Below, in pieces: positions 3,826 through 60,800 of a DNA stretch of 64,000 bases; positions within the stretch are counted from its first letter, which is position 1; each line of letters starts with the position of its first letter. Both the position numbers and the translations under genes were made by a program. Where the stretch lies: positions 62,001-126,000 of the IMG/VR virus record IMGVR_UViG_3300027749_000049; one strand, 5' to 3'. The notes below the pieces were generated by a model that was not told the origin of the DNA, ran no database searches, and worked only from the letters and a program-made list of their open reading frames with translations. This stretch comes from a virus.

Positions 3826-4369
3826 AGCGATTAATACGACAAGCCCAGTAACCTGCGCTCATGCGGTCCGTTTTAAGATGGCACTGGTGGCGAGCTGCAA
3901 AGCTTTTACGCGCAGCCGGATTACTAACCTTTGCAGTAAGTCCGCCGTGAACATCGCCAAATGCAATTTTCTTGACTTTACCCGTGGCCGGGTTCTTTAC
4001 GTAGACGTGATATTTCTTGGCTCCACCGCGTTGAGGTTTACCGATTTCTACGGTTTTACCGTGGTATTCGGCTTCAAAAATTGGAAAGTCGAGTAGGATA
4101 GTTGTGCCTTCAAATTGGGCAGTTAGGCCCAGGTCGGTATCCCTAAACAGGTCCTGATCTATACTAGACAGGCTAATTTCTCCAGCTTGCCAAACCCTTC
4201 GAGCCTCAACGATTAAGCGCTGATGGGCAAGACTGCCGGGTCTAAATACTGATTCGCAAACCGAGAGGCCGGCCACTAGGTGGTATTGCAGTGCCTCGTG
4301 TAGAGGAACCTTGTGCTCTGCTTTTTCTTGGTAGGCTTCAGTTATCCAAGCCTGGAATGGTTTCAACAT
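3782..4369 (-). CDS. Capsid-targeted-like protein with Cys/His C-terminal domain
   Basis: 195 residues from ATG 4369; longer in-frame starts lie in GC-rich leader without support. The N-terminus MLKPFQAWITEA matches the shared signal. The C-terminal domain (KKIAFGDVHGGLTAKV, ARKSFAARHQCHL, MSAGYWACR, ending YPGFW) belongs to a family common in phage structural proteins, where RKSFxARHxC and YWxC probably bind zinc or stabilise the fold. Probably virion-associated. Confidence 0.78.
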   Translation of the reverse strand: MLKPFQAWITEAYQEKAEHKVPLHEALQYHLVAGLSVCESVFRPGSLAHQRLIVEARRVWQAGEISLSSIDQDLFRDTDLGLTAQFEGTTILLDFPIFEAEYHGKTVEIGKPQRGGAKKYHVYVKNPATGKVKKIAFGDVHGGLTAKVSNPAARKSFAARHQCHLKTDRMSAGYWACRINRYAHLWGGKTYPGFW

Positions 4370-4434
4370 TTTCTCTTTTTCTTTTTTCCGGCCCGCCCAA
4401 GGGGGTAACCTTGGCGGTGCAGGCACGCCCAATT

Positions 4435-4815
4435 TTATCTGCGGTTACCCAACCCATACTGCATTATTAACTGTACCCCATTTTCATTAAAGCCTAATTC
4501 GCGTAACCGTTTTGCAAACGGTGCAAATATTGTACCTAACTCTTCTGGTCGCTGGCGATGAATTTCAGAGGCGACTGCTTTTGCTCGGCGTATCAATTTT
4601 TCCGGGTCAGTAATTAATTTACTCATACTCACGGCTCGGCCCAATGGGTTTGACCCCGCAACCAGGTCCCTGGCACGGTCTAGATCCTTGATATGCGGGC
4701 GTTGACCATCAATTCGGCGGTCGGGTTGAACCTCTGCAATACCCAATTGGATAAGCCGGGCATAGTTAAGTTCAGTATTTTCAAATAGCTTAAATGAGGT
4801 TATGTAGTTTTTCAT
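4435..4815 (-). CDS. Small protein with capsid-targeting-like N-terminus
   Basis: 126 residues. MKNYITSFKLFEN is a variant of the shared signal; LNYARLIQLGIAE carries the second motif. The rest is basic and helical (RRAKAVASEIHRQRPEEL) with no recognised domain. It sits 2 bp from the stop codon of the gene upstream, in the same leftward operon. Confidence 0.75.
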   Translation of the reverse strand: MKNYITSFKLFENTELNYARLIQLGIAEVQPDRRIDGQRPHIKDLDRARDLVAGSNPLGRAVSMSKLITDPEKLIRRAKAVASEIHRQRPEELGTIFAPFAKRLRELGFNENGVQLIMQYGLGNRR

Positions 4816-4817
4816 AG

Positions 4818-5276
4818 TTATAGTTTATTTAATGGGGGTAGAAATTCGCCAGTTGCCACAAATCTCCAGATATTGTCGGTTGCTATCCATAAGACATCCG
4901 CATCGTGTTGGTAGGCTTCATCTAGTAACCATTCATCAACGATTTCAGTATCACCTTCACGACCATAAGCCTCCATGAAGCCTGGAATACTTTGTGGAAA
5001 ATCTACCCAAGAGTCTTCTTCAGCTTTGGATTGAGCCAGATCCGCCGGCCAATTTTCATAACGCTGCCAAATAACAAAAGGTTCTGGATTACCGTATAGT
5101 GGATTTTTAAGCCCAATATTTTCCCAACGTAAGCTTGCTTTAATAACCCTGAGCCCTTTCTCTGCGATACCCAATTGGTTAAGCCTAGCTAGATTTACCA
5201 GGTGCTGAGCCTCTGGTGAAAGACTTAAAGCCTCGGTTAGTGCAAACTTATGAAATTGATCAATATACTGTTTCAT
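4818..5276 (-). CDS. Acidic protein with capsid-targeting-like N-terminus
   Basis: 152 residues, taking the ATG at 5276 because it places the signal MKQYIDQFHKFALTEAL at the N-terminus. The second motif, NLARLNQLGIAEKG, follows at about residue 30. The remainder is acidic and Trp-rich (WENIGLKNPLYG, WLLDEAYQHDADVLW) and unrecognised. First gene of the leftward operon, next to the GC-rich island. Confidence 0.75.
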   Translation of the reverse strand: MKQYIDQFHKFALTEALSLSPEAQHLVNLARLNQLGIAEKGLRVIKASLRWENIGLKNPLYGNPEPFVIWQRYENWPADLAQSKAEEDSWVDFPQSIPGFMEAYGREGDTEIVDEWLLDEAYQHDADVLWIATDNIWRFVATGEFLPPLNKL

Positions 5277-6009
5277 GGTATTATTTATAGGAGCCCGCTC
5301 CACGATTTATTTAATCTATTAGCCTGTATAAGCAGACCCCAACCCGGGGGAGAATTTGCTCCAGGTAGCGGGTGACCTCCCAAATGAGCCCAGCAAACCG
5401 GCCCGGGCCCGGGGAGAATTTCAGAATAGCTCTTGGGCACATTGGTATTGTCGGTGAATCCTGGTCCGTGGAGAAACCGGAAAAAAGTAAAGTGCTGCGG
5501 CCGGCCTCCAGGAGTACTTTTTTTATGTCAGCAAGGTCACTCCTGGGGCACCTCCCGGAGTCACCCCGGGCTGCTATATTGTGAGCCTGGGGCAGCTCCG
5601 GTAGTGACCTCCAGGGCAGCCTCCAGGGCATCTCCTGGGCCGGGAGTAGTTCACTTTTTGCTGCTCCCGGGACAGCTAGCCCGGTGGCAGGCCAGGAGCC
5701 GGCTGGCCAGTTGCTAGCTCGGTACCGAGCATGGAGCCTGCTCCTAGCTAGCCAAACTCCGGCCGGGCTTAGGCCTGTCCAGACCTGGCCTGCGCTAGAG
5801 ACCAGCCGAGCTTAGCCTAACCTGGGCCGGAATCGGTTGTACTGTACCCCGCCGAAATCGGTTAGACCCCGCCGAAAGTTAGTTAAGCTTAACCTAACCT
5901 GCTCTAGAGAAAAAAGCATTTAACTCCTTTAGCCTATGCATTTTTTTGGATCTAAACTTTGTGGTTGGATAGAGTATAAGATTTCTGTAAAATATAATTT
6001 AGGAAGAAG
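5277..6009. other. GC-rich gene-free island
   Basis: About 600 bases (5300-5900) are strikingly GC-rich in an AT-rich genome and dense in CCCGGG, GGCC and CTAG words. CCCCGCCGAAA occurs twice near 5848-5875, and CTTAGCCTAACCTG/CTTAACCTAACCTG are near-repeats close by. Reading frames on both strands are open only by composition. A possible hairpin with A- and T-tracts (5910-5947) closes it before an AT-rich promoter region. Replication, packaging or structural RNA roles are possible but not shown. Confidence 0.6.
5910..5947. terminator. Possible bidirectional terminator
   Basis: AAAAAAGCAT and ATGCATTTTTTT pair across a loop of about 16 bases. The short stem makes this tentative. Confidence 0.4.
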
Positions 6010-19397: not shown

Positions 19398-19799
19398 ATG
19401 AAAGAAGCTTCTACATCAGACATTAGTTTTGTCCGGTTCTGTATTGCAGAATTAGGGATCGAAACAAGTCCCAATATCAGGATAGGCGATGACCACCGTA
19501 AGGCGCAAGAGCACCGAGCTATGGGTTACTATAGTCCAGCAGATAACTTGATCTGGGTGTTACGCGGTAGTCGGGTACCTGCAGACTGGTATCGAACCCT
19601 AGCCCATGAATTGGTCCACTGGCGCCAGCGCGAGCTAGGCCAAGGTTTGGACGGTGCAGACGGTAGCGAAATCGAGAATGAAGCTAACTCTAAAGCAGCA
19701 GTACTCTTACGGGAATGGGGTAGAAGAGATGAATTAATTTATGTCTTACCTAATGAGGCGCAACCGGCTGACCCCCAAGTAGAGCCTGCGACCCCATAA
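19398..19799 (+). CDS. Zinc metallopeptidase-like protein
   Basis: 133 residues. AHELVHWRQRELGQG is a zincin HExxH motif, with a probable third ligand in EIENEANSKA. The family (IrrE/SprT-like small zincins) is common in phages; substrates are unknown. The start is the only ATG before the conserved core. Its last 50 bases overlap the convergent recombinase-like gene. Confidence 0.75.
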   Translation: MKEASTSDISFVRFCIAELGIETSPNIRIGDDHRKAQEHRAMGYYSPADNLIWVLRGSRVPADWYRTLAHELVHWRQRELGQGLDGADGSEIENEANSKAAVLLREWGRRDELIYVLPNEAQPADPQVEPATP

Positions 19800-20415
19800 T
19801 CAGGTAGCTTAAGTCTTCCTTTAACTCTGCCCTGTATTCTTCCTGATACAGGGTTTTTTGTATAACATGCAGTTCAACACCGTGCCAGACCAGGAATCTC
19901 TCTAGAATCTCAGCACCCGCAAACCTGGCCAGCCTGTCCGGGGTCTCAACTATAACCATGCTTATCTGCTTGCGTAACACTAAGTCAAAGATCTTGTCTA
20001 GCCCAGACCTGCCGACTAGGCTACCAGCCTTACCGACCTCCGCAATTACCTGGTCTACCCTGATCCCGGCCGCCGTGCAGTAGGCTAGCACCCGGTCCTG
20101 CTGAGCCTGCAGCCGGGTTCGGGATGAGACGCCGGCCGCGCCCTGGTCCGGAATTCCCGCCGCCCGGCAGTAGACTACGACTTCCCTAGACTGGGGTAGT
20201 TTACTCCCTAGTAGCTTCAAGAGGTCCTGCTTGTCGTAGTAGATCCGGCCGTTGATCTCGTTCTTCCAGTGTCTTAGGGTACCGGCTTTAACGTAGCGGT
20301 CTAGGGTCTTTAAGGAAATACCTAGGAATTCCGCGGCCCCCTTCTTGTACACGAGCTCGCCGGTTGGGAACTCGGTTAGGGGTCTAGAGTCTGGGGTCTG
20401 GGCTGGTTCCTGCAT
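19750..20415 (-). CDS. IS607-type serine-recombinase-like protein lacking the usual catalytic Ser
   Basis: 221 residues: an N-terminal MerR-type helix-turn-helix (AAEFLGISLKTLDRYVKAGT, about 27-46) and a resolvase domain (about 77-190). The domain keeps VVVYCRAAG, the Arg-bearing ETPDRLARFAG loop and ELHVIQ, but the active-site RVS(S) is replaced by RAAG. A VSSRTRLQAQQD segment follows a small insertion and could hold a displaced serine. No TnpB partner is visible, and the gene is very GC-rich, unlike its surroundings. Likely a domesticated or degenerate transposon gene. Confidence 0.72.
   Translation of the reverse strand: MQEPAQTPDSRPLTEFPTGELVYKKGAAEFLGISLKTLDRYVKAGTLRHWKNEINGRIYYDKQDLLKLLGSKLPQSREVVVYCRAAGIPDQGAAGVSSRTRLQAQQDRVLAYCTAAGIRVDQVIAEVGKAGSLVGRSGLDKIFDLVLRKQISMVIVETPDRLARFAGAEILERFLVWHGVELHVIQKTLYQEEYRAELKEDLSYLIMGSQALLGGQPVAPH
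20204..20212 (+). repeat. CTCCCTAGT core within recombinase-like gene
   Basis: Nine-base core on the + strand, antisense to the recombinase-like gene. Confidence 0.5.
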
Positions 20416-34011: not shown

Positions 34012-35154
34012 ATGAAACACTTAAAACCATATACATCATTTATTAATGAGGGCCAATTTTATCAAGGGGAACTTAACCCAGTATTTTGGCAAGATGGTCA
34101 ATTTGACCAAGAGACCCGAACTAAACTATTACAAATAGCTACCGATTTTTATACTGACCTTAAAGTTGAGGCTCCAATTATTGATATTCATTTAACTGGA
34201 TCATTAGCCAATTTTAACTGGACCGAACACTCTGACCTTGATGTACACGTTCTACTTGACTTCTCAACGATCGGAGAGGATGTTGAACTGGTTAAAAAAG
34301 CAATGGACGGCTTGCGATTCGTTTGGAACTTAAGACATCCAGTTAAAATTAAAGGATTTGATGTTGAACTCTATGCACAAGACCATAAAGAGCCTCACGT
34401 TGCATCAGGTTTATATTCTTTGCTAAAAGGCGAATGGATTATTGAACCAAAGGCAGATGAGCCAAAAATTGATGAAAACGACGTTTTACGTAAAGCCGAA
34501 GCTTATAAAGTAGAAATTGCTGAACTTGAAAAAGAGGTTGAGCAAACTGATTCTGACCAAGCACGCGAAGCCCAAGACCGTATCTCTGCCCTAAAGCAAA
34601 AGATAATGAAAGCTCGTAAAGAGGGTCTTGCCGCAAATGGAGAGTTCTCTATTGAGAATCTAGTATTTAAACAGTTACGTAATGCCGGATTTATTGAAAG
34701 ACTAATAAATCTTGGAGCGAAAGCCTATTCCCATATCTATTCAGATCCAGCAGATTCGCTAGACCATGACGAGAGAGTAAATGAATCACTAGTTGGAAAA
34801 GGCAGTACAGTATTGGTACTTGGGCCAGAGGTTGAAGGTGCTAAACGATTATTCCTGTTTCATGCTGACTGGTCAAGGCAAGTTGAAAGAAACGGGTGGA
34901 CTGTAAACATGGTTGGTCTTACTGCACCAGTTTATATCGTTCAAGAACAGGAAGGTAGATTAGTTGCAAAGACTATATCGATAAGCCCAGGTAATTTAAA
35001 GAAATATGTAGGCCTTACTGACTATAATGTTGTCCTAAATTCCAAAACAAAAACTCCGTTTTGGCATCAAGCTGTTAAGTATACAAATGCTGCTGCTTTA
35101 TTAAAAGATCTGTCAGCAAGCATTCGATCAATACCAGAAGTTACATTTAATTAA
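34012..35154 (+). CDS. Nucleotidyltransferase-domain protein with capsid-targeting-like N-terminus
   Basis: 380 residues. MKHLKPYTSFINEGQ is the shared signal (F-I-N-E). A polymerase-beta-type nucleotidyltransferase core follows: LTGSLANFNW with Gly63-Ser64, then HSDLDVHVLLD with Asp75 and Asp77 as metal ligands. The middle is a coiled coil (about 165-205). NERLINLGAKA, near residue 235, recalls the second shared motif. Such domains transfer nucleotides to RNA, protein or small molecules. With the signal, it could be delivered with the DNA at infection (inference). Confidence 0.82.
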   Translation: MKHLKPYTSFINEGQFYQGELNPVFWQDGQFDQETRTKLLQIATDFYTDLKVEAPIIDIHLTGSLANFNWTEHSDLDVHVLLDFSTIGEDVELVKKAMDGLRFVWNLRHPVKIKGFDVELYAQDHKEPHVASGLYSLLKGEWIIEPKADEPKIDENDVLRKAEAYKVEIAELEKEVEQTDSDQAREAQDRISALKQKIMKARKEGLAANGEFSIENLVFKQLRNAGFIERLINLGAKAYSHIYSDPADSLDHDERVNESLVGKGSTVLVLGPEVEGAKRLFLFHADWSRQVERNGWTVNMVGLTAPVYIVQEQEGRLVAKTISISPGNLKKYVGLTDYNVVLNSKTKTPFWHQAVKYTNAAALLKDLSASIRSIPEVTFN

Positions 35155-38086: not shown

Positions 38087-39448
38087 ATGAATCAACTACA
38101 AAATAAAACAGTTACTGAGTATCTTGACCAGGACTATGCAATGTACGGCATGTACACGTTAGAGAGTAGAGCAATTCCATCTGTGATTGATGGTTTTAAA
38201 CCTACTGCTCGTAAAATTATCTACATTGCAGATAAGGTTTGGAAATCAGGTAATGAGAAACCCTTAAAGATATTTCAATTAGGCGGACGTATTGCAGCTG
38301 ATGCACATTACCACCATGGCGATGGATCCTTAAATGGTGCAATTATTGGAATGGCTCAATCATTTAAGAACTCGTTACCTCTACTTGAAGAGCTTGGTCA
38401 ATTTGGTTCTTTACGATCTCCTGAAGCTGGCGCTGCTCGTTATATTTCAACCAAATTAACTTCAAACTTTAGATTATTATATAAAGACTTTGAACTACTA
38501 GAAAATCAGGTCGAAGAAGGCAATGTGATTGAACCTAAATATTTCTTACCAGTTATTCCAACTGTCCTATTAAATGGAAGCTCAGGTATTGCAGTAGGTT
38601 TTGCAACTAATATTCTTAATCGTAATCCACTTGACCTAGTTGATGCATGTGTTAAAGTGCTTGATGGTAAAAAGGTTGGCAAATTACTTCCATGGTGGAA
38701 AGAATATTCTGGCCAAGTTGAGTCGGTTGCTGGTACCAATCAATATGTAATGCGTGGAGTATATGAGATTCAAAATACAACTACTGTTAATATTACAGAG
38801 TTACCGCCATCAATGACCTTTCAGAAATATGAAGTGTACCTTAACTCTTTAGTAGATAGAGGAATTGTTTATTCGTATGAAGACAATTCAACTAACGGCA
38901 TTAATTATACAATTAAATTTGCACGAGCAACCCTAGCTGATCTTATTGCAAAGGGCAAGCTTGATCAAACCCTTAAAATGGTTGAGACTGAAACTGAGAA
39001 CTTAACTTGCTTAAATGAACGTGGTAAATTAATAATCTTTGAAGAGGTTTCTCAAGTTGTAGAATACTTTATAACTTTCAGATTAAGTTTTTATTCAAAG
39101 CGAAAGGCTTTCTTAATTAATAAGTATACTGAAGAACTTAAGTATCTTTCAAACCGAGCACGCTTTGTAAAACTTATAGTTGACGGAAAATTAAAGGTTA
39201 ATAATGTTCCGCGAAAAGAAATAGTAGAATACCTGCAAGCAAATGGATTTGATGAAGTAAATGGGTCTTACAGTTACTTACTAAACATGCCAATTCATTC
39301 CTTAACCAAAGAAACCTATGAGCAATTATTAAAAGAGGTTGCTGATAAGAAAATTGAATTAGCTGAAATTAAAAAATTAGAACCAATTGATATGTACAGA
39401 ACAGATTTAACTGATCTTAAAAAGAATTTAAAAACAACACTAAAATAA
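38087..39448 (+). CDS. 52: T4-type DNA topoisomerase II, DNA-cleaving subunit (gp52-like)
   Basis: 453 residues, close to T4 gp52 (442). ARKIIYIADKVW and HYHHGDGSLNGAIIGMAQ are the winged-helix and tower conserved parts; AGAARYISTKL carries the catalytic Tyr at residue 119. ILLNGSSGIAVGFATNIL-type sequence follows. It lacks the C-terminal GyrA beta-propeller, as T4 gp52 does. Confidence 0.95.
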   Translation: MNQLQNKTVTEYLDQDYAMYGMYTLESRAIPSVIDGFKPTARKIIYIADKVWKSGNEKPLKIFQLGGRIAADAHYHHGDGSLNGAIIGMAQSFKNSLPLLEELGQFGSLRSPEAGAARYISTKLTSNFRLLYKDFELLENQVEEGNVIEPKYFLPVIPTVLLNGSSGIAVGFATNILNRNPLDLVDACVKVLDGKKVGKLLPWWKEYSGQVESVAGTNQYVMRGVYEIQNTTTVNITELPPSMTFQKYEVYLNSLVDRGIVYSYEDNSTNGINYTIKFARATLADLIAKGKLDQTLKMVETETENLTCLNERGKLIIFEEVSQVVEYFITFRLSFYSKRKAFLINKYTEELKYLSNRARFVKLIVDGKLKVNNVPRKEIVEYLQANGFDEVNGSYSYLLNMPIHSLTKETYEQLLKEVADKKIELAEIKKLEPIDMYRTDLTDLKKNLKTTLK

Positions 39449-39450
39449 AG

Positions 39451-39822
39451 ATGGAAAGACACGAAGTAATTTCGCAAACGTTAGGTTTTCCAGGAAGAAT
39501 GATTTCTGGTTCAAAGAGTGGATATCACAAAAATTATCCAAACAATCTGGTAATATTCAATGCAAATGTATGCACTGACAGAAATAAAATATGGTATGGA
39601 GATTTGGATTTAACGTTAGATAAAGAAAAGCTTTCCTTACTTGCAGTTGCACTAGGCCAAGATCTATATGTTCTATACGAGATGGATGGCCGATTTGAAA
39701 ATGAAAAAGCTCCAATACTTAAAGCAGCATCAGTCATTTTTAAAGCTGACGGAACTTGGGAAATTGGCCAAGGGTCAAGATATGAAAGACTTGATGCTGA
39801 AACCCTAACCATAAATAATTAA
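39451..39822 (+). CDS. Unknown protein
   Basis: 123 residues, beta-rich (NNLVIFNANVCTDRNKIWYG, LYVLYEMDGRFENEKAPILK). Starts 2 bases after the topoisomerase stop. No family recognised. Confidence 0.7.
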   Translation: MERHEVISQTLGFPGRMISGSKSGYHKNYPNNLVIFNANVCTDRNKIWYGDLDLTLDKEKLSLLAVALGQDLYVLYEMDGRFENEKAPILKAASVIFKADGTWEIGQGSRYERLDAETLTINN

Positions 39823-39829
39823 TACACTC

Positions 39830-40381
39830 ATGATTAAATCATTTACTCAATTCCTAACCGGTATATTTGAAAAGAAAGGCGAAACTCATGAGTTTGGCTG
39901 CGCAATGGTCTATTTTAACTTTCCGGAAATAGCAGACTTCCATTCACAAATTGATCAAGCTGACGTCTATACTGAAGAAGGCGACCGTTCATTTGGCCTA
40001 GAGGACGAACCTCATACTACTCTACTATACGGATTACATTCATATAAAATTCCAGACCAAGAAGTGTTGGATATTTGCATGGCTCAACCAATTGGCCCAA
40101 TGACCTTAGTCAATGCATCTCTATTTCAAAATGAAAAATACGATGTTCTTAAATTTGACGTTGAGAATCCAGTCTTATCCAAAATAAATGCAGAATTAGC
40201 AAAGTTTCCGCATACTACTAATTTTCCAGACTACCATCCTCATGCAACCATTGGATACTTAAAACCTGGTACTGGTAAAAAATACGTCGAATTATTTAAG
40301 GATAAACAATACGAAGTTGTACCTGAGAAAATTGTATATTCAAAACCAGGAGGAGAAAGGATTGAGAAGCCGTGGAATTAG
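39830..40381 (+). CDS. 2H phosphoesterase with capsid-targeting-like N-terminus
   Basis: 183 residues. N-terminus MIKSFTQFLTGIFEKKGE is a variant of the shared signal. The two HxT motifs of 2H phosphoesterases are at H62-T64 (EPHTTLLYGL) and H138-T140 (YHPHATIGYL), with the spacing of the family. 2H enzymes open 2',3'- or 2',5'-linked phosphodiesters; phage members include Acb1 (T4 57B), which cuts the cyclic signal of CBASS immunity, and RNA-end-processing enzymes. Which of these applies cannot be told here. Overlaps the next gene by 10 bases. Confidence 0.83.
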   Translation: MIKSFTQFLTGIFEKKGETHEFGCAMVYFNFPEIADFHSQIDQADVYTEEGDRSFGLEDEPHTTLLYGLHSYKIPDQEVLDICMAQPIGPMTLVNASLFQNEKYDVLKFDVENPVLSKINAELAKFPHTTNFPDYHPHATIGYLKPGTGKKYVELFKDKQYEVVPEKIVYSKPGGERIEKPWN

Positions 40382-40836
40382 TTAGTACATATATTTGCAA
40401 AAAAGGAGATATTGGGGTCCACGATAATATGTTTGGTGGAACAATTCTTTCAATAATAGACGATGCTTCAGCCAGTTATTCTTCCCAAATTTGCGATACT
40501 CAACGAATTGTTACCCTAAAGATTGACGAGCTTATTTTTAAGAAACCGGTTAAGGTTGGCAATATCCTAAAAGTATATGCAGATGTAAAAGAGTTCGGTA
40601 CAACCTCAGTTACCCTATACATTGAGGTTCGTAAACACAACGTATACACAGGTTTACAAACAGTTGTGACTCATACCCATATTAAATTTGTTAGAATAGA
40701 CGATGAAGGTCTTCCGCTTGCAATAAGTAATAGAGTTAAAGAGAGATATGCTGAGCGTATGAAAGAATACGGTAGAGCTCTATTTACTCCAGAAGAAATG
40801 ATACAGTTAAAAAAGAAACCTAAGAATAAGGATTAA
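40372..40836 (+). CDS. Hotdog-fold acyl-CoA thioesterase-like protein
   Basis: 154 residues. GVHDNMFGGTILSIIDDAS is the hotdog motif of YciA/acyl-CoA thioesterases (D-x-N-x-x-G-G-x-(I/L)-(L/M)-x-x-(I/L)-D-(D/E)), and TLKIDELIFKKPVKVGNIL the second strand region. Host members hydrolyse acyl-CoA thioesters. Rare in phages. Overlaps the phosphoesterase gene, so the two are translated together. Confidence 0.82.
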   Translation: MELVSTYICKKGDIGVHDNMFGGTILSIIDDASASYSSQICDTQRIVTLKIDELIFKKPVKVGNILKVYADVKEFGTTSVTLYIEVRKHNVYTGLQTVVTHTHIKFVRIDDEGLPLAISNRVKERYAERMKEYGRALFTPEEMIQLKKKPKNKD

Positions 40837-51654: not shown

Positions 51655-52524
51655 ATGAGTACTACCCCATTTGCATATAATCCAAGTCAGTCTACTATTG
51701 CTGGAACAACAAATTTAGTTAATTTATCAATAGGAACAACTGATCAGCACTATGGTGCTAATCCGGGTGGGTTAACTTGGTGGCTAGGACCTGAAGATAT
51801 AACTGGTTATCTAATTTGCAGACCGGTACCTGCTGGAAATCAGCCAACTCAAATTGGTGCAATTGGAACAGTTCGATTTGCTAGAAGCACGGCTAAAACT
51901 GATCAATCATTTTTGGAACTGGCTAATTATATTAAAAGAGATTTAGGCGGATCTCCTAACTTGGCTAGTGCATCAGCCGCTCTTACTTGGTTAACCGATA
52001 ATGGCTATTGGACTTCATGGGTTCAACCATATATTGCAGGTTTATATAAAACAACATACAATGGATATTTTGCAGATAACGTTAGCTTCTTTGCAACTGC
52101 AACTCCACAAGCATTTGGTGCAAATCCAATAACTGAAGTCCAAACAACCTCTATCTTTGAACCAGCGACGGATGATGGATCCGATTTTAGTTGTCAATGG
52201 CTAGGTTATTTTAAACCAACAACTTCTGAAACTTATACATTTTACACATCAAGCGATGATGCATCGTATATGTGGATCGGTGCAAATGCTCAAACTGGTT
52301 TTACGACAGCCAATGCAACGGTTAACAATGGTGGATTGCATGGAACAACTGAAAAATCGGGATCAATTACATTAACCGCTGGCACTTATTATCCAGTTAG
52401 AATTCAATTTGGTGAACGTGGTGGTGGGGATGTATTAACATTTAATTACTCAACTCCAACTATCTCTAAAACAACTAATGTTACTGGATTAGTTTTCTAT
52501 AATTCAACAACAAACAATTTTTAA
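51655..52524 (+). CDS. Fibre-like protein with PA14/GLEYA-type C-terminal domain
   Basis: 289 residues. N-terminal ~125 residues (NPSQSTIAGTTNLVNLSIGT, NPGGLTWWLGPEDITGYLI, LANYIKRDLGG) are shared with the 52540 protein. The C-terminal part (YFKPTTSETYTFYTSSDDAS, YYPVRIQFGERGGGDVLTFN) matches the PA14/GLEYA carbohydrate-binding fold. Likely a virion surface or receptor-binding protein. Confidence 0.82.
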   Translation: MSTTPFAYNPSQSTIAGTTNLVNLSIGTTDQHYGANPGGLTWWLGPEDITGYLICRPVPAGNQPTQIGAIGTVRFARSTAKTDQSFLELANYIKRDLGGSPNLASASAALTWLTDNGYWTSWVQPYIAGLYKTTYNGYFADNVSFFATATPQAFGANPITEVQTTSIFEPATDDGSDFSCQWLGYFKPTTSETYTFYTSSDDASYMWIGANAQTGFTTANATVNNGGLHGTTEKSGSITLTAGTYYPVRIQFGERGGGDVLTFNYSTPTISKTTNVTGLVFYNSTTNNF

Positions 52525-52539
52525 AAATAAAATACTATA

Positions 52540-53655
52540 ATGGCTAGTACAAAACCATTTTCTAGAAATCCATCACATACTGCAATTTCAGGGGTAACCA
52601 ATCTTGGAGATATTGCAATAGGAACCTCTGCTCAAAACTATTCAGCTAATCCAGGCGGATTAACTTGGTGGATGGGGCCAGACGAATCAACTGGCTATGT
52701 GATTGGTGCACCAGTTGCTCTAGAAAATCAATCAACTCCAATTGGATCAGTAGGAAATGTTCAATTTTGGAGAACCAATTCCTTAAGCGATTCTGAATTT
52801 CTTTCATTAGCCAATTATGTTAAACGGACATTCGGTGGAGCTGCTGATTTAGCAACTGCAACCGATGCTAATGTATGGTTAGCTGCAAACAATTACTATA
52901 CAAACTGGACTTTGCCAGCAACTACAACAACGACGACGGCTGCTCCGACTACGACCACCACTACCACAGCTTCAGGTGGATTAGTGACAAGTGGACTAGT
53001 ATTCAATTTACAAACCGCACCTTCATCTGGAACAACATGGACAGATGCAAGTGGAAACGGTTATAATGCAACATTACAAGGTTCGCCATCTTATGTATCT
53101 AATAATGGTGGAGGTATACTATTAAATAATGCGGACTATACTGGGGTAGATTTTATTAGTGTTCCATATAACATTAGCAGTAATACGTTTACGGTTGAAA
53201 TAGTTGCATCGTTTAACTCAACCTCGTATTGGGCAACAATTTGGGGTAACGAGGCATACAGTTTCAGTAGAGGATACTTTGCGTATCAACTTAATTCAAC
53301 AAATATAACTTGGGGTTCGCCAAGTAGTAATACAACGGCAGCGACCATAACTGCAAGTAATTCAATAAGACACTGGGTCTTTGTAGTTAACGGTACAAGT
53401 AAAAGTTTATACTTAAATGGATCTCAGCTGGGTTCAACTGTAACCTTAAATAATCCAACTGGTGGATATGCAACTGGTAATTTCTATTTTGGCTCAAGAC
53501 ATACTAATACAGGTACTGGAAATACAGACAGACTTAACAATTCAAATTCTGCAAACTATCCAGTATTCTACCAAATGAGAATATACAACACAGCTCTATC
53601 TGCTGCAAATGTGGATACTAATTTTAACGCAATCCGATCAACCTACGGTCTGTAA
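52540..53655 (+). CDS. Fibre-like protein with LamG-type C-terminal domain
   Basis: 371 residues. The N-terminal domain repeats that of the 51655 protein (NPSHTAISGVTNLGDIAIGT, LANYVKRTFGG). A Thr-rich linker (about 129-143) leads to a laminin-G/concanavalin-type lectin domain (WTDASGNGYNATLQGSPS, YFGSRHTNTGTG, YQMRIYNTALSAANVDTNF). Same anchor, different sugar-binding end. Confidence 0.85.
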   Translation: MASTKPFSRNPSHTAISGVTNLGDIAIGTSAQNYSANPGGLTWWMGPDESTGYVIGAPVALENQSTPIGSVGNVQFWRTNSLSDSEFLSLANYVKRTFGGAADLATATDANVWLAANNYYTNWTLPATTTTTTAAPTTTTTTTASGGLVTSGLVFNLQTAPSSGTTWTDASGNGYNATLQGSPSYVSNNGGGILLNNADYTGVDFISVPYNISSNTFTVEIVASFNSTSYWATIWGNEAYSFSRGYFAYQLNSTNITWGSPSSNTTAATITASNSIRHWVFVVNGTSKSLYLNGSQLGSTVTLNNPTGGYATGNFYFGSRHTNTGTGNTDRLNNSNSANYPVFYQMRIYNTALSAANVDTNFNAIRSTYGL

Positions 53656-58240: not shown

Positions 58241-58813
58241 ATGAAAATAATATTTTTAGATATAGATGGTGTTCTTAATTGTGAAAATGCATACAAAAAT
58301 GGAGAATGTCAATATCAGGGGTGGACTTGGGAAGACGGTCGCAAAGATCATTACCAACGTTTTTGCGTACGTAGCAAGGATTTATTAAATAAGCTCATTG
58401 ATGAAACTGGAGCAAAAATTATTATCAGTTCAACATGGAGAATGAGTGGTATTGAATTTATGAGGAAGGTGTGGGAGTTTGAAGAAATGCATGGCGAAAT
58501 AATAGGAATTACTCCATCATTGAGAACCAATGGTATTAATATTCCAAGAGGAATGGAAATTAAATATTATCTAGAAAATGATTTAAAATTCCAACACATT
58601 AATTGGTCAGAAGAAGAACAACAGAAATGCATAGATACTTCAGGAGTAGAGAATTATATTATTATTGACGATGATTCTGACATGCTTTATGGACAACGAA
58701 ATCATTTTGTACACGTATTACCGTCCCCAAGAAATAAAGATGGATTTAATCAATTCTATTATGAAACCGCTTTACAGAAGTTAAGTAGAACAATAATCGA
58801 TTTGAATTATTAA
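58241..58813 (+). CDS. HAD phosphatase of the Swiss-Army-Knife RNA-repair type
   Basis: 190 residues. DIDGVLN gives D7 and D9; KIIISSTWRMSGIE is motif II and IIIDDDSDML motif IV. The shape (long insert with a Trp/Asp-rich cap) fits the HAD domain found in Swiss-Army-Knife RNA-repair proteins, which removes 3'-phosphates or processes RNA ends. Adjacent to an RNA ligase. Confidence 0.85.
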   Translation: MKIIFLDIDGVLNCENAYKNGECQYQGWTWEDGRKDHYQRFCVRSKDLLNKLIDETGAKIIISSTWRMSGIEFMRKVWEFEEMHGEIIGITPSLRTNGINIPRGMEIKYYLENDLKFQHINWSEEEQQKCIDTSGVENYIIIDDDSDMLYGQRNHFVHVLPSPRNKDGFNQFYYETALQKLSRTIIDLNY

Positions 58814-58828
58814 TAAAAAAATATAACA

Positions 58829-59974
58829 ATGGAAAATAAAGACTCAGTTTGCTATGTAGCAAAAATTAACGAAATTAGGCCTATTGAAGGTGCAGACAAC
58901 ATTGAATTAGCAATTGTTGGAGGATGGAATTGTATTACTAAAAAAGGAGAATATGCAGCTGACGATTTAATTGTAGTTGCTACAACTGATGCAGTCATTC
59001 CACAAGAATTATCAGATGTAATGAACGTGACAAATTATTTACGTAAAGGTGGACGTGTTCGTACTGTAAAATTACGTGGAGTATATTCAGAATGTTTAAT
59101 TATTCCGTTTGAACATTGTAAAGATGGCACTAAATTAGCCAATACCAAATGGAACGAAGGAGAAGACATGATGATGTTCTTAGGTATTTTCAAGTATGAA
59201 CCGCCAGTTAAAACAATATCATTAGGCGGTGGTAAAAAGATTCGCTATCAAGATAACCCTAATTTTCATGTTTACTACAAGTTTCCTAACTTGAAGAATG
59301 TAGCTGGGATGTTTACTGAAGATGATGCGGTAGAAATTACTCGTAAAATCCACGGAACAAATGCTCGTTATGGAATTGTTAAGAAGACTAAATTAACATT
59401 TTGGGACAAGGCTAAGAAATTCTTTGGTTTGGCTGACAAATGGATAGGTTATGAATTTGTAGTTGGTTCTCATAATGTTGAAAAGGGTTCTGATTCTCAA
59501 GGTTTCTACGATACGAATGTTTGGTACCAAATTGCAGACAAATATGAAATCAAACAGAGATTATGGGAATACGTTAAGAGTGTTGCAATGGAACCAGAAA
59601 TCGGAGACGGCATTACAATCTATGGAGAAATTTATGGAGCTGGAATTCAAAAAAATTATGAATACGGATTAACTGACATTGAGTTTGTTGGGTTTGATGT
59701 CAAAGAGGCTGGAGAATACTTAAGTCCTATCAATTCTAAATTGATGATTAAAGATATTTTGCAATTGCCTTATGTTGAAATCTTACATTTTGGAAACTGG
59801 TCTCAAGAAACCCAAGACAAATTTGTATTCAATAATTTTATTGCAGGTACTAAAGTTCCAGAAGAAGGAATTGTAATTAAGTACCATACTGGAGAAAGAA
59901 ACAAAGTTGCAAAGGTAATTAATCCTGACTACTTGATTTACGGAGAAAAACACGATATCGGAGACTCACACTAA
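58829..59974 (+). CDS. RNA ligase of the DRB0094 (Rnl5) type
   Basis: 381 residues. N-terminal OB-like domain (RPIEGADNIELAIVGGWNCI, about 15-120) and a nucleotidyltransferase domain with catalytic Lys173 in KIHGTN, EFVVGSHN, and the late motifs EEGIVIK and VAKVINPDYL. It seals RNA nicks or breaks with ATP. Next to HAD and cREC genes, so an RNA-repair role is likely. Confidence 0.92.
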   Translation: MENKDSVCYVAKINEIRPIEGADNIELAIVGGWNCITKKGEYAADDLIVVATTDAVIPQELSDVMNVTNYLRKGGRVRTVKLRGVYSECLIIPFEHCKDGTKLANTKWNEGEDMMMFLGIFKYEPPVKTISLGGGKKIRYQDNPNFHVYYKFPNLKNVAGMFTEDDAVEITRKIHGTNARYGIVKKTKLTFWDKAKKFFGLADKWIGYEFVVGSHNVEKGSDSQGFYDTNVWYQIADKYEIKQRLWEYVKSVAMEPEIGDGITIYGEIYGAGIQKNYEYGLTDIEFVGFDVKEAGEYLSPINSKLMIKDILQLPYVEILHFGNWSQETQDKFVFNNFIAGTKVPEEGIVIKYHTGERNKVAKVINPDYLIYGEKHDIGDSH

Positions 59975-59980
59975 GCCCTA

Positions 59981-60331
59981 ATGATAAACCTCAAGACACT
60001 AATAATAGGAATGCTATTTGGGCTTATAGCTCAAGTGCTAACATTCTTTCAGCTACAAGGACAAATGCGATATGAGTGGTTTAAAAACCATTATTGGGCA
60101 ATAGTGTTAATGGGTATTCCGATATCAATGACATTTATGTATTCAGTAAAAAATATGATAATAGCATTTGATGGTCAAATGTGGCCATCTCGATTAATTG
60201 GGTTCAGCATAGGAGCAATCTCATTTACTTACCTAAGCTATGTTATATTTAATGAGCCTATTACCGCAAAGACATTAGTGTGCTTGGCATTAGCCGTTGC
60301 AATATTATTAATACAATTATTTTGGAAATAA
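59981..60331 (+). CDS. Small four-helix membrane protein (EamA/DMT-like)
   Basis: 116 residues with four hydrophobic helices (about 6-24, 38-57, 67-87, 95-115); YSVKNMIIAFDGQMWPSRLI and PITAKTLVCLALAVAILLIQ recall half of a small DMT/EmrE-type transporter. Function unknown. Confidence 0.7.
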   Translation: MINLKTLIIGMLFGLIAQVLTFFQLQGQMRYEWFKNHYWAIVLMGIPISMTFMYSVKNMIIAFDGQMWPSRLIGFSIGAISFTYLSYVIFNEPITAKTLVCLALAVAILLIQLFWK

Positions 60332-60332
60332 A

Positions 60333-60800
60333 ATGGAAGAAAATAAATTAATTAGAATTTACCTAGACGATGTTAGAACACCAATTGAACAGGATTGGAT
60401 TGTTGTTAGAAGTTATCAGGAGTTCAAGGATGCAGTCAATGAAATTGGGCTAAGGAATATTCATATGATCTCGTTAGATCACGACTTAGGCGACTCAGCT
60501 ATGTCGGAGTATTTTACAAATGTGAGTCCTAATTATAAATTAGACTATAATAATATTACAGAAAAAACTGGAATGGACTGTACTAAATGGTTAGTTAATA
60601 AGTTTTATGACGAAAATCCAAAACGGCTTGATATGAGTCGTCAAGATAAACGTAATGTACCAATTAAATTTCCAGCAGTTTACGTGCACTCAGCCAATCC
60701 AATTGGTTCAGCTAATATGATGGGTTACTTTAATAATTTCTTTATGAATGAAGGCGAACCTCAAAATTGTGTACGAGTTCAGATACCGCATACCGTTTAA
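60333..60800 (+). CDS. cREC-type cyclic-phosphate-processing receiver domain
   Basis: 155 residues. IRIYLDDVRTP (D12 D13) and IHMISLDHDLGD are the hallmarks of the cREC domain, a receiver-like fold associated with RNA repair and 2',3'-cyclic-phosphate processing; TGMDCTKWLVNKF and FPAVYVHSANPIGSANM follow. It completes the HD-HAD-ligase-cREC island next to tRNA genes. Confidence 0.82.
   Translation: MEENKLIRIYLDDVRTPIEQDWIVVRSYQEFKDAVNEIGLRNIHMISLDHDLGDSAMSEYFTNVSPNYKLDYNNITEKTGMDCTKWLVNKFYDENPKRLDMSRQDKRNVPIKFPAVYVHSANPIGSANMMGYFNNFFMNEGEPQNCVRVQIPHTV

What the first reader, a model, noticed from the sequence alone, without database searches (positions are those of the whole stretch)
39830..40381. 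2H phosphoesterase with capsid-targeting-like signal: possible pre-loaded anti-defence enzyme
Two HxT motifs (62-64 and 138-140) define a 2H phosphoesterase. Phage 2H enzymes include the anti-CBASS protein Acb1. If the N-terminus (MIKSFTQFLTG) sends it into the head, the enzyme would arrive before host cyclic-nucleotide signalling begins. The Glu expected at the cut site is displaced (GIFE), so targeting is less certain than for other members.
Basis: partly seen in the sequence, partly recalled or inferred. Interest (0 to 1): 0.75.

Follow-up and report, generated by a model that had tools for sequence, protein, structure and literature searches.

The report
Capsid-tagged Acb1-like 2H phosphoesterase in phage
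A large bacteriophage encodes an enzyme that cuts cyclic-phosphate nucleotides and carries a short front tag of the kind phage T4 uses to load proteins into its head, so it probably enters the host cell with the phage DNA, ready to blunt a host defence before any phage gene is expressed.

Summary
Window 39830-40381 (+) encodes a 183-aa 2H phosphoesterase with HxT motifs at 62-64 and 138-140 that are invariant in 38 aligned relatives.

The "displaced" Glu lies in I12-F13-E14, which fits the published cleavage motif L/I-x-E of T4's prohead protease. F5-x-x-F8 matches the targeting residues of T4 IPIII, and T4's own IPI cuts as late as residue 19. Otherwise variable tails carry [LI]xE in 23 of 23 distinct cases (8.9 expected). 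The T4-like pattern marks 15 of 155 ORF N-termini of this record against 0.6% background; in 30 kb of T4 it picks exactly the three known internal proteins. Relatives, including a 79%-identical one, encode the T4-type protease and major capsid protein.

The anti-CBASS substrate is not established. Fold comparison is tied between Acb1, Usb1, CPDase and LigT. Sequence leans to Acb1 (PHROG 755 holds T4 Acb1 and all 38 relatives, not E. coli LigT), but this protein scores 20 bits on Pfam Acb1 (cut-off 27). The phage also encodes an untagged RNA-repair set, so RNA end-healing remains a serious rival.

Verdict: probably a pre-loaded Acb1-like enzyme; new variant of a known kind.

The parts
39830..40381 (+). 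2H phosphoesterase ORF, 183 aa (P0001)
   Evidence: phrog_755 E 3.7e-9; AF2 model mean pLDDT 86.6
39830..39871 (+). predicted capsid targeting propeptide, residues 1-14 MIKSFTQFLTGIFE, cut predicted after E14
   Evidence: genome-wide pattern; 23/23 tails with [LI]xE; pN/pS 0.15; model disordered over residues 1-19
39842..39853 (+). F5-T-Q-F8, counterpart of the IPIII targeting residues 4 and 7
   Evidence: sequence; role of IPIII residues 4 and 7 from PMC9026906
39863..39871 (+). I12-F13-E14, fits the gp21-type cleavage motif L/I-x-E
   Evidence: motif from PMC9026906
40013..40021 (+). first HxT motif, H62-T63-T64
   Evidence: invariant H and T in A1
40223..40249 (+). F132-P-D-Y-H-P-H138-A-T140: second HxT motif with the Acb1-like F-x-D-Y-x-P-H-x-T signature
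   Evidence: hhalign to T4 Acb1 set E 4e-6 over 33 columns
40337..40342 (+). Y170-S171, invariant pair near the C-terminus
39451..39822 (+). 123-aa ORF of unknown function directly upstream, conserved upstream of the gene in six loci
   Evidence: no Pfam match
40372..40836 (+). 4HBT thioesterase ORF overlapping the 3' end; related ORF within 6 kb of the 2H gene in 13 loci
   Evidence: PF03061 E 3.6e-13

Best explanation
A stand-alone 2H phosphoesterase of a T4-like Bacteroidetes phage that is drawn into the prohead core by its N-terminal T4-type capsid targeting sequence (residues 1-14), freed from the tag by the prohead protease after I-F-E14, kept with the DNA in the head and ejected with it. 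In the new host it most likely linearises a cyclic-nucleotide alarm signal (CBASS or type III CRISPR type) by HxT/HxT acid-base catalysis, as T4 Acb1 does, before any phage gene is expressed. Shown: the ORF, the catalytic motifs, the predicted fold, the tag pattern and its conservation. Inferred from these: packaging and processing (I put this part at about 0.85). Inferred with less support: the cyclic oligonucleotide substrate (about 0.5 given packaging).
For: Tag: strict pattern in 15/155 N-termini against 0.6% background, T4 positive control exact; [LI]xE in 23/23 distinct tails against 8.9 expected from shuffles, while the rest of the tail varies; tail pN/pS 0.15, as constrained as the domain at 0.18, although predicted disordered. 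Machinery: S77 protease and gp23 in six large relatives and in Molly phage and on the 254-kb contig with the 79% relative; their capsid proteins have an [LIV]xE before the capsid domain near T4's cut site. Enzyme: invariant HxT/HxT, 2H fold. Acb1 side: all 38 relatives hit phrog_755, where T4 Acb1 scores 5e-68 and E. coli LigT does not match; hhalign to the T4 Acb1 set 4e-6 against 0.012 for the single LigT sequence; F132 lines up with base-stacking F107 of Acb1 (PMC9117128); members L041, L047, L050, L051, L102 and L103 pass Pfam's Acb1 cut-off. Timing: the phage's RNA-repair proteins carry no such tag.
Against: P0001 itself is below the Acb1 cut-off (20.1 of 27 bits) and scores about equally on PF13563 (19.2). 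Several relatives pass the PF13563 cut-off, some with a higher score than on Acb1. The base-specific E141 and lid W147 of Acb1 have no conserved counterpart that I could identify. Fold scores are tied. The 128-kb record has no S77 or gp23 hit; it appears to be a fragment. Two relatives, Molly and L103, lack the tag site, so packaging is not universal. No proteomics or assay exists.
Confidence: 0.42

Rival explanations
1. Packaged in the same way, but the substrate is the 2',3'-cyclic phosphate at RNA ends (or ADP-ribose 1'',2''-cyclic phosphate): it heals tRNAs cut by host anticodon nucleases at the very start of infection, feeding the phage's own RNA ligase system.
For: The phage encodes HAD_SAK_2, RNA ligase and cREC_REC proteins at 58-61 kb of the window and an AAA_33 kinase-like protein at 54 kb. 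All 38 relatives also match PF13563 and, weakly, TIGR02258 RNA 2',3'-cyclic phosphodiesterase. Jumbo-phage 2H enzymes have been read as 2',3'-cyclic-phosphate specialists (PMC7824862).
Against: The 2H gene lies 14 kb or more from the repair genes, and no repair gene family is recurrent within 6 kb of it across the loci. The repair enzymes are untagged. E. coli LigT falls outside phrog_755. Iyer et al. 2017 noted that the phage 2H versions they studied do not associate with RNA ligases (PMC5512222).
Confidence: 0.33
2. The protein is not packaged: it acts only in the infected cell, and the N-terminal tail has another role or is an inherited remnant.
For: No virion data. Molly and L103 versions lack the site. 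T4 Acb1 itself has no L/I-x-E propeptide, and its activity was purified from infected cells (PMC9117128).
Against: Tail under purifying selection though disordered, 23/23 tails with the cut motif, about 20 sibling proteins with the same kind of N-terminus, T4-type protease present in relatives.
Confidence: 0.12
3. Packaged Usb1-like RNase that trims or cuts host RNA on entry.
For: Usb1 is the top fold match (Z 13.7); an RNase role was proposed for phage 2H domains (PMC5512222); a huge-phage relative is fused to a DEDDh-type exonuclease domain (L104).
Against: Fold scores are tied; sequence is nearer to Acb1.
Confidence: 0.08

Closest known systems
Acb1 (T4 gp57B, PF23474, phrog_755)
   Same: 2H fold, HxT/HxT, F-x-D-Y-x-P-H-x-T block, phage origin, same PHROG family
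   Different: P0001 scores below the Pfam cut-off, has a different C-terminus without clear E141/W147 counterparts, and has a capsid tag that T4 Acb1 lacks
T4 internal proteins IPI, IPII, IPIII
   Same: N-terminal [FY]xx[FW] followed by L/I-x-E within 10-19 residues; IPI is a delivered anti-restriction inhibitor
   Different: the cargo here is a catalytic 2H domain rather than a small inhibitor or basic protein
LigT/ThpR and other RNA 2',3'-cyclic phosphodiesterases (PF13563, PF02834, TIGR02258)
   Same: fold and catalytic motifs
   Different: E. coli LigT is not in phrog_755, lacks F-x-D-Y and shows much weaker profile similarity to this family
2H domains of phage polyvalent proteins (Iyer et al. 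2017, PMC5512222)
   Same: predicted to enter the host with phage DNA and to degrade immune nucleotides or RNA
   Different: those are mostly domains of large multidomain, portal or MuF fusions; this is a single domain with a T4-type cleavable tag

Membership tests
2H phosphoesterase superfamily | two HxT/S motifs on a duplicated fold | tested here: met
Acb1 (PF23474) | Pfam score above curated cut-off (27 bits) | tested here: not met
   20.1 bits for P0001; some relatives pass, e.g. L041 31.6 and L047 31.6
Acb1 (PF23474) | same phage protein family as T4 gp57B (phrog_755) | tested here: met
   P0001 3.7e-9, all 38 members; T4 gp57B 5e-68
Acb1 (PF23474) | nucleotide-binding residues Y12, W74, F107, E141, W147 | tested here: inconclusive
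   F107 lines up with F132; W74 possibly F99 (by eye); Y12, E141 and W147 not identifiable by sequence
Acb1 (PF23474) | cleavage of 3'3'-cGAMP and related cyclic oligonucleotides | not testable with these tools
   needs enzyme assay
LigT / RNA 2',3'-cyclic phosphodiesterase (TIGR02258, PF13563) | score above curated cut-off | tested here: not met
   PF13563 19.2 of 27 bits; TIGR02258 16.7 of 65.7 bits
T4-type CTS-bearing internal (ejection) proteins | N-terminal targeting residues [FY]xx[FW] | tested here: met
   F5, F8; conserved in six near relatives
T4-type CTS-bearing internal (ejection) proteins | L/I-x-E prohead protease site 10-19 residues in | tested here: met
   I12-F13-E14; [LI]xE in 23/23 distinct tails
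T4-type CTS-bearing internal (ejection) proteins | gp21-type protease encoded by the same phage | tested here: inconclusive
   no match in the 128-kb record; present in the 79% relative and in six other large relatives and Molly
T4-type CTS-bearing internal (ejection) proteins | found in the virion, processed | not testable with these tools
   needs virion mass spectrometry

The most novel reading that the evidence does not exclude
A virion-delivered cyclic-oligonucleotide phosphodiesterase: an Acb1-like enzyme fused to a T4-type capsid tag so that CBASS or type III CRISPR alarm signals are destroyed from the moment of DNA entry, within a set of about 20 similarly tagged pre-loaded proteins that also includes a NUDIX hydrolase.
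Probability: 0.4. Interest if true: 0.8.

Novelty: new variant of a known kind. Interest (0 to 1): 0.6.

Why it matters
Acb1-type enzymes are known as proteins found in the infected cell. A tagged, pre-loaded form would mean that cyclic-nucleotide immunity can be disarmed before phage transcription starts, which bears on how fast CBASS must respond. The tag pattern also gives a readable rule for predicting which proteins large Bacteroidetes phages inject, a question that can be tested directly by virion proteomics.

Tried and rejected
PF03420 and PF07068 on the own record gave nothing; the 128-kb record is probably incomplete, and relatives have both. Fold comparison to decide Acb1 against LigT was rejected as uninformative: Z 12.0-13.7 for all. 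Genomic linkage to RNA repair was looked for: no repair family recurs within 6 kb of the gene. Reading the T4 Acb1 start MMEFKDFSTG as a capsid tag was rejected: it has no L/I-x-E and runs straight into the conserved domain. An E176-x5-W182 spacing like Acb1's E141-x5-W147 was noted, but W182 is confined to the nearest clade, so it is not used as evidence. The genome-collection scan found only two relatives, both in metagenome bins; the two bins also hold T4-type protease and gp23 matches, for L100 on the same contig, so no cellular orthologue was found in that scan. PADLOC gave nothing relevant. A literature search for Flavobacterium phage virion proteomes gave nothing.

Full report
What is there. 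Window 39830-40381 (+) is an open reading frame of 183 codons. In the 128,004-base virus record that holds the window it is the only match to Pfam Acb1 and to Pfam 2_5_RNA_ligase2. Fifty-two relatives were fetched from viral contigs, with more in phage records and two in metagenome bins. In an alignment of 38 sequences the two HxT motifs, G23, M26, P133, D134, Y135, P137, Y143, Y170 and S171 are invariant, and so is E14. AlphaFold2 gives a confident 2H fold for residues 20-183 and no order for residues 1-19.

The tag. For T4, the prohead protease gp21 cuts after L/I-x-E; internal-protein propeptides are 10-19 residues long; residues 4 and 7 of IPIII serve targeting and residues 8 and 10 processing (PMC9026906). 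T4 IPIII starts MKTYQEFIAE and IPI starts MKTFKEFTSTTTPVSTITE. P0001 starts MIKSFTQFLTGIFE: F5-x-x-F8, then I12-F13-E14. A strict pattern, M..[FY]xx[FW]..[LI]xE, occurs in 15 of 155 N-termini of this record, against 24 of 3843 internal segments and 44 of 7750 shuffled N-termini. In a 30-kb T4 stretch it finds the three known internal proteins and nothing else.

Conservation of the tag. The tails of the relatives are very different in sequence, yet all 23 distinct tails hold [LI]xE; shuffled tails would give 8.9. In all of them a [LIV]xE site lies 5-10 residues before the domain. Tails share ancestry, so the probability is indicative only. Among six close relatives the tail has pN/pS 0.15 and the domain 0.18, which is unusual for a disordered stretch without function. 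Two relatives, Molly phage and L103, have short starts without the site: the domain can exist without the tag.

The machinery. The record shows no gp21 or gp23 match, but it is probably a fragment. The contig that encodes the 79%-identical relative L100, with the same topoisomerase-topoisomerase-ORF-2H gene order, has both. Six large relatives and Molly have both as well. In the relatives' capsid proteins an [LIV]xE stands before the capsid domain near T4's cut site, for example L-F-E in G002 and I-N-E in G019. In G002 the 2H gene lies beside the gp23 and gp21 genes.

What the enzyme does. Fold comparison cannot decide: Usb1 13.7, an archaeal 2'-5' RNA ligase-like protein 13.2, Acb1 12.8, poxvirus cGAMP phosphodiesterase 12.6, phage BCSR5 Acb1 12.5, LigT 12.0. 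Sequence leans to Acb1: phrog_755 contains T4 Acb1 and catches all 38 members, LigT matches no PHROG, and the block T-x-x-F-x-D-Y-x-P-H-x-T is shared. The profile comparison gives 4e-6 for the Acb1 set and 0.012 for LigT, though LigT was given as a single sequence and the Acb1 set as an alignment. F132 lines up with base-stacking F107 of Acb1 (residue role from PMC9117128). Pfam places the family between Acb1 and PF13563, with P0001 below both cut-offs. I therefore do not file it as Acb1, but judge that it more likely works like Acb1.

The rival. The phage carries HAD_SAK_2, RNA_ligase and cREC_REC proteins, and jumbo-phage 2H enzymes have been read as 2',3'-cyclic-phosphate specialists (PMC7824862). 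These repair proteins are untagged and far from the 2H gene, and no repair family recurs near it in other loci. A recurrent neighbour is a 4HBT thioesterase, which points to neither reading.

Prior art. Iyer et al. 2017 predicted that 2H domains in injected polyvalent proteins degrade immune nucleotides or act as RNases (PMC5512222). T4 IPI shows that tagged internal proteins can be anti-defence proteins (PMC3012670). What is new here is the pairing of a T4-type cleavable tag with a stand-alone Acb1-like enzyme, conserved across a family of large phages. My library searches found no paper that reports it, but the library is not complete.

Noticed in passing
window 807-47501 (many ORFs) and G000 37370-61381: About 20 ORFs carry the same T4-like tag, including a NUDIX hydrolase (MIKTFSNFLAE, G000 39295-39762), an amidase (G000 52151-53536) and a nucleotidyltransferase-like protein (window 34012-35154).
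   Followed up: partly
window ORFs at 2639, 4435, 4818, 22346, 24075, 24585, 46348: A recurrent motif N-L-x-R-L-x-x-L-G-I-A, often shortly after the tag and up to three times in one protein; meaning unknown.
   Followed up: no
window 58241-60800: RNA-repair genes HAD_SAK_2, RNA ligase and cREC_REC close together, none with the tag.
   Followed up: partly
L104:2995-4311: In a huge phage (LR745206) a tagged 2H domain (MKLKKYKQFIKE) is fused to a DEDDh-type exonuclease domain.
   Followed up: partly
window 40372-40836: 4HBT thioesterase; a relative lies within 6 kb of the 2H gene in 13 loci, some of them distant.
   Followed up: partly
L054:13592-14411: In T4 the acb1 gene (57B) lies directly beside ipI, a tagged anti-restriction protein.
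   Followed up: no
window 19750-20415 (-): ORF that looks by eye like an IS607-type serine recombinase with an N-terminal helix-turn-helix.
   Followed up: no
window 4000-6000: GC rises to about 0.46-0.51 against about 0.34-0.38 in the first 3 kb.
   Followed up: no
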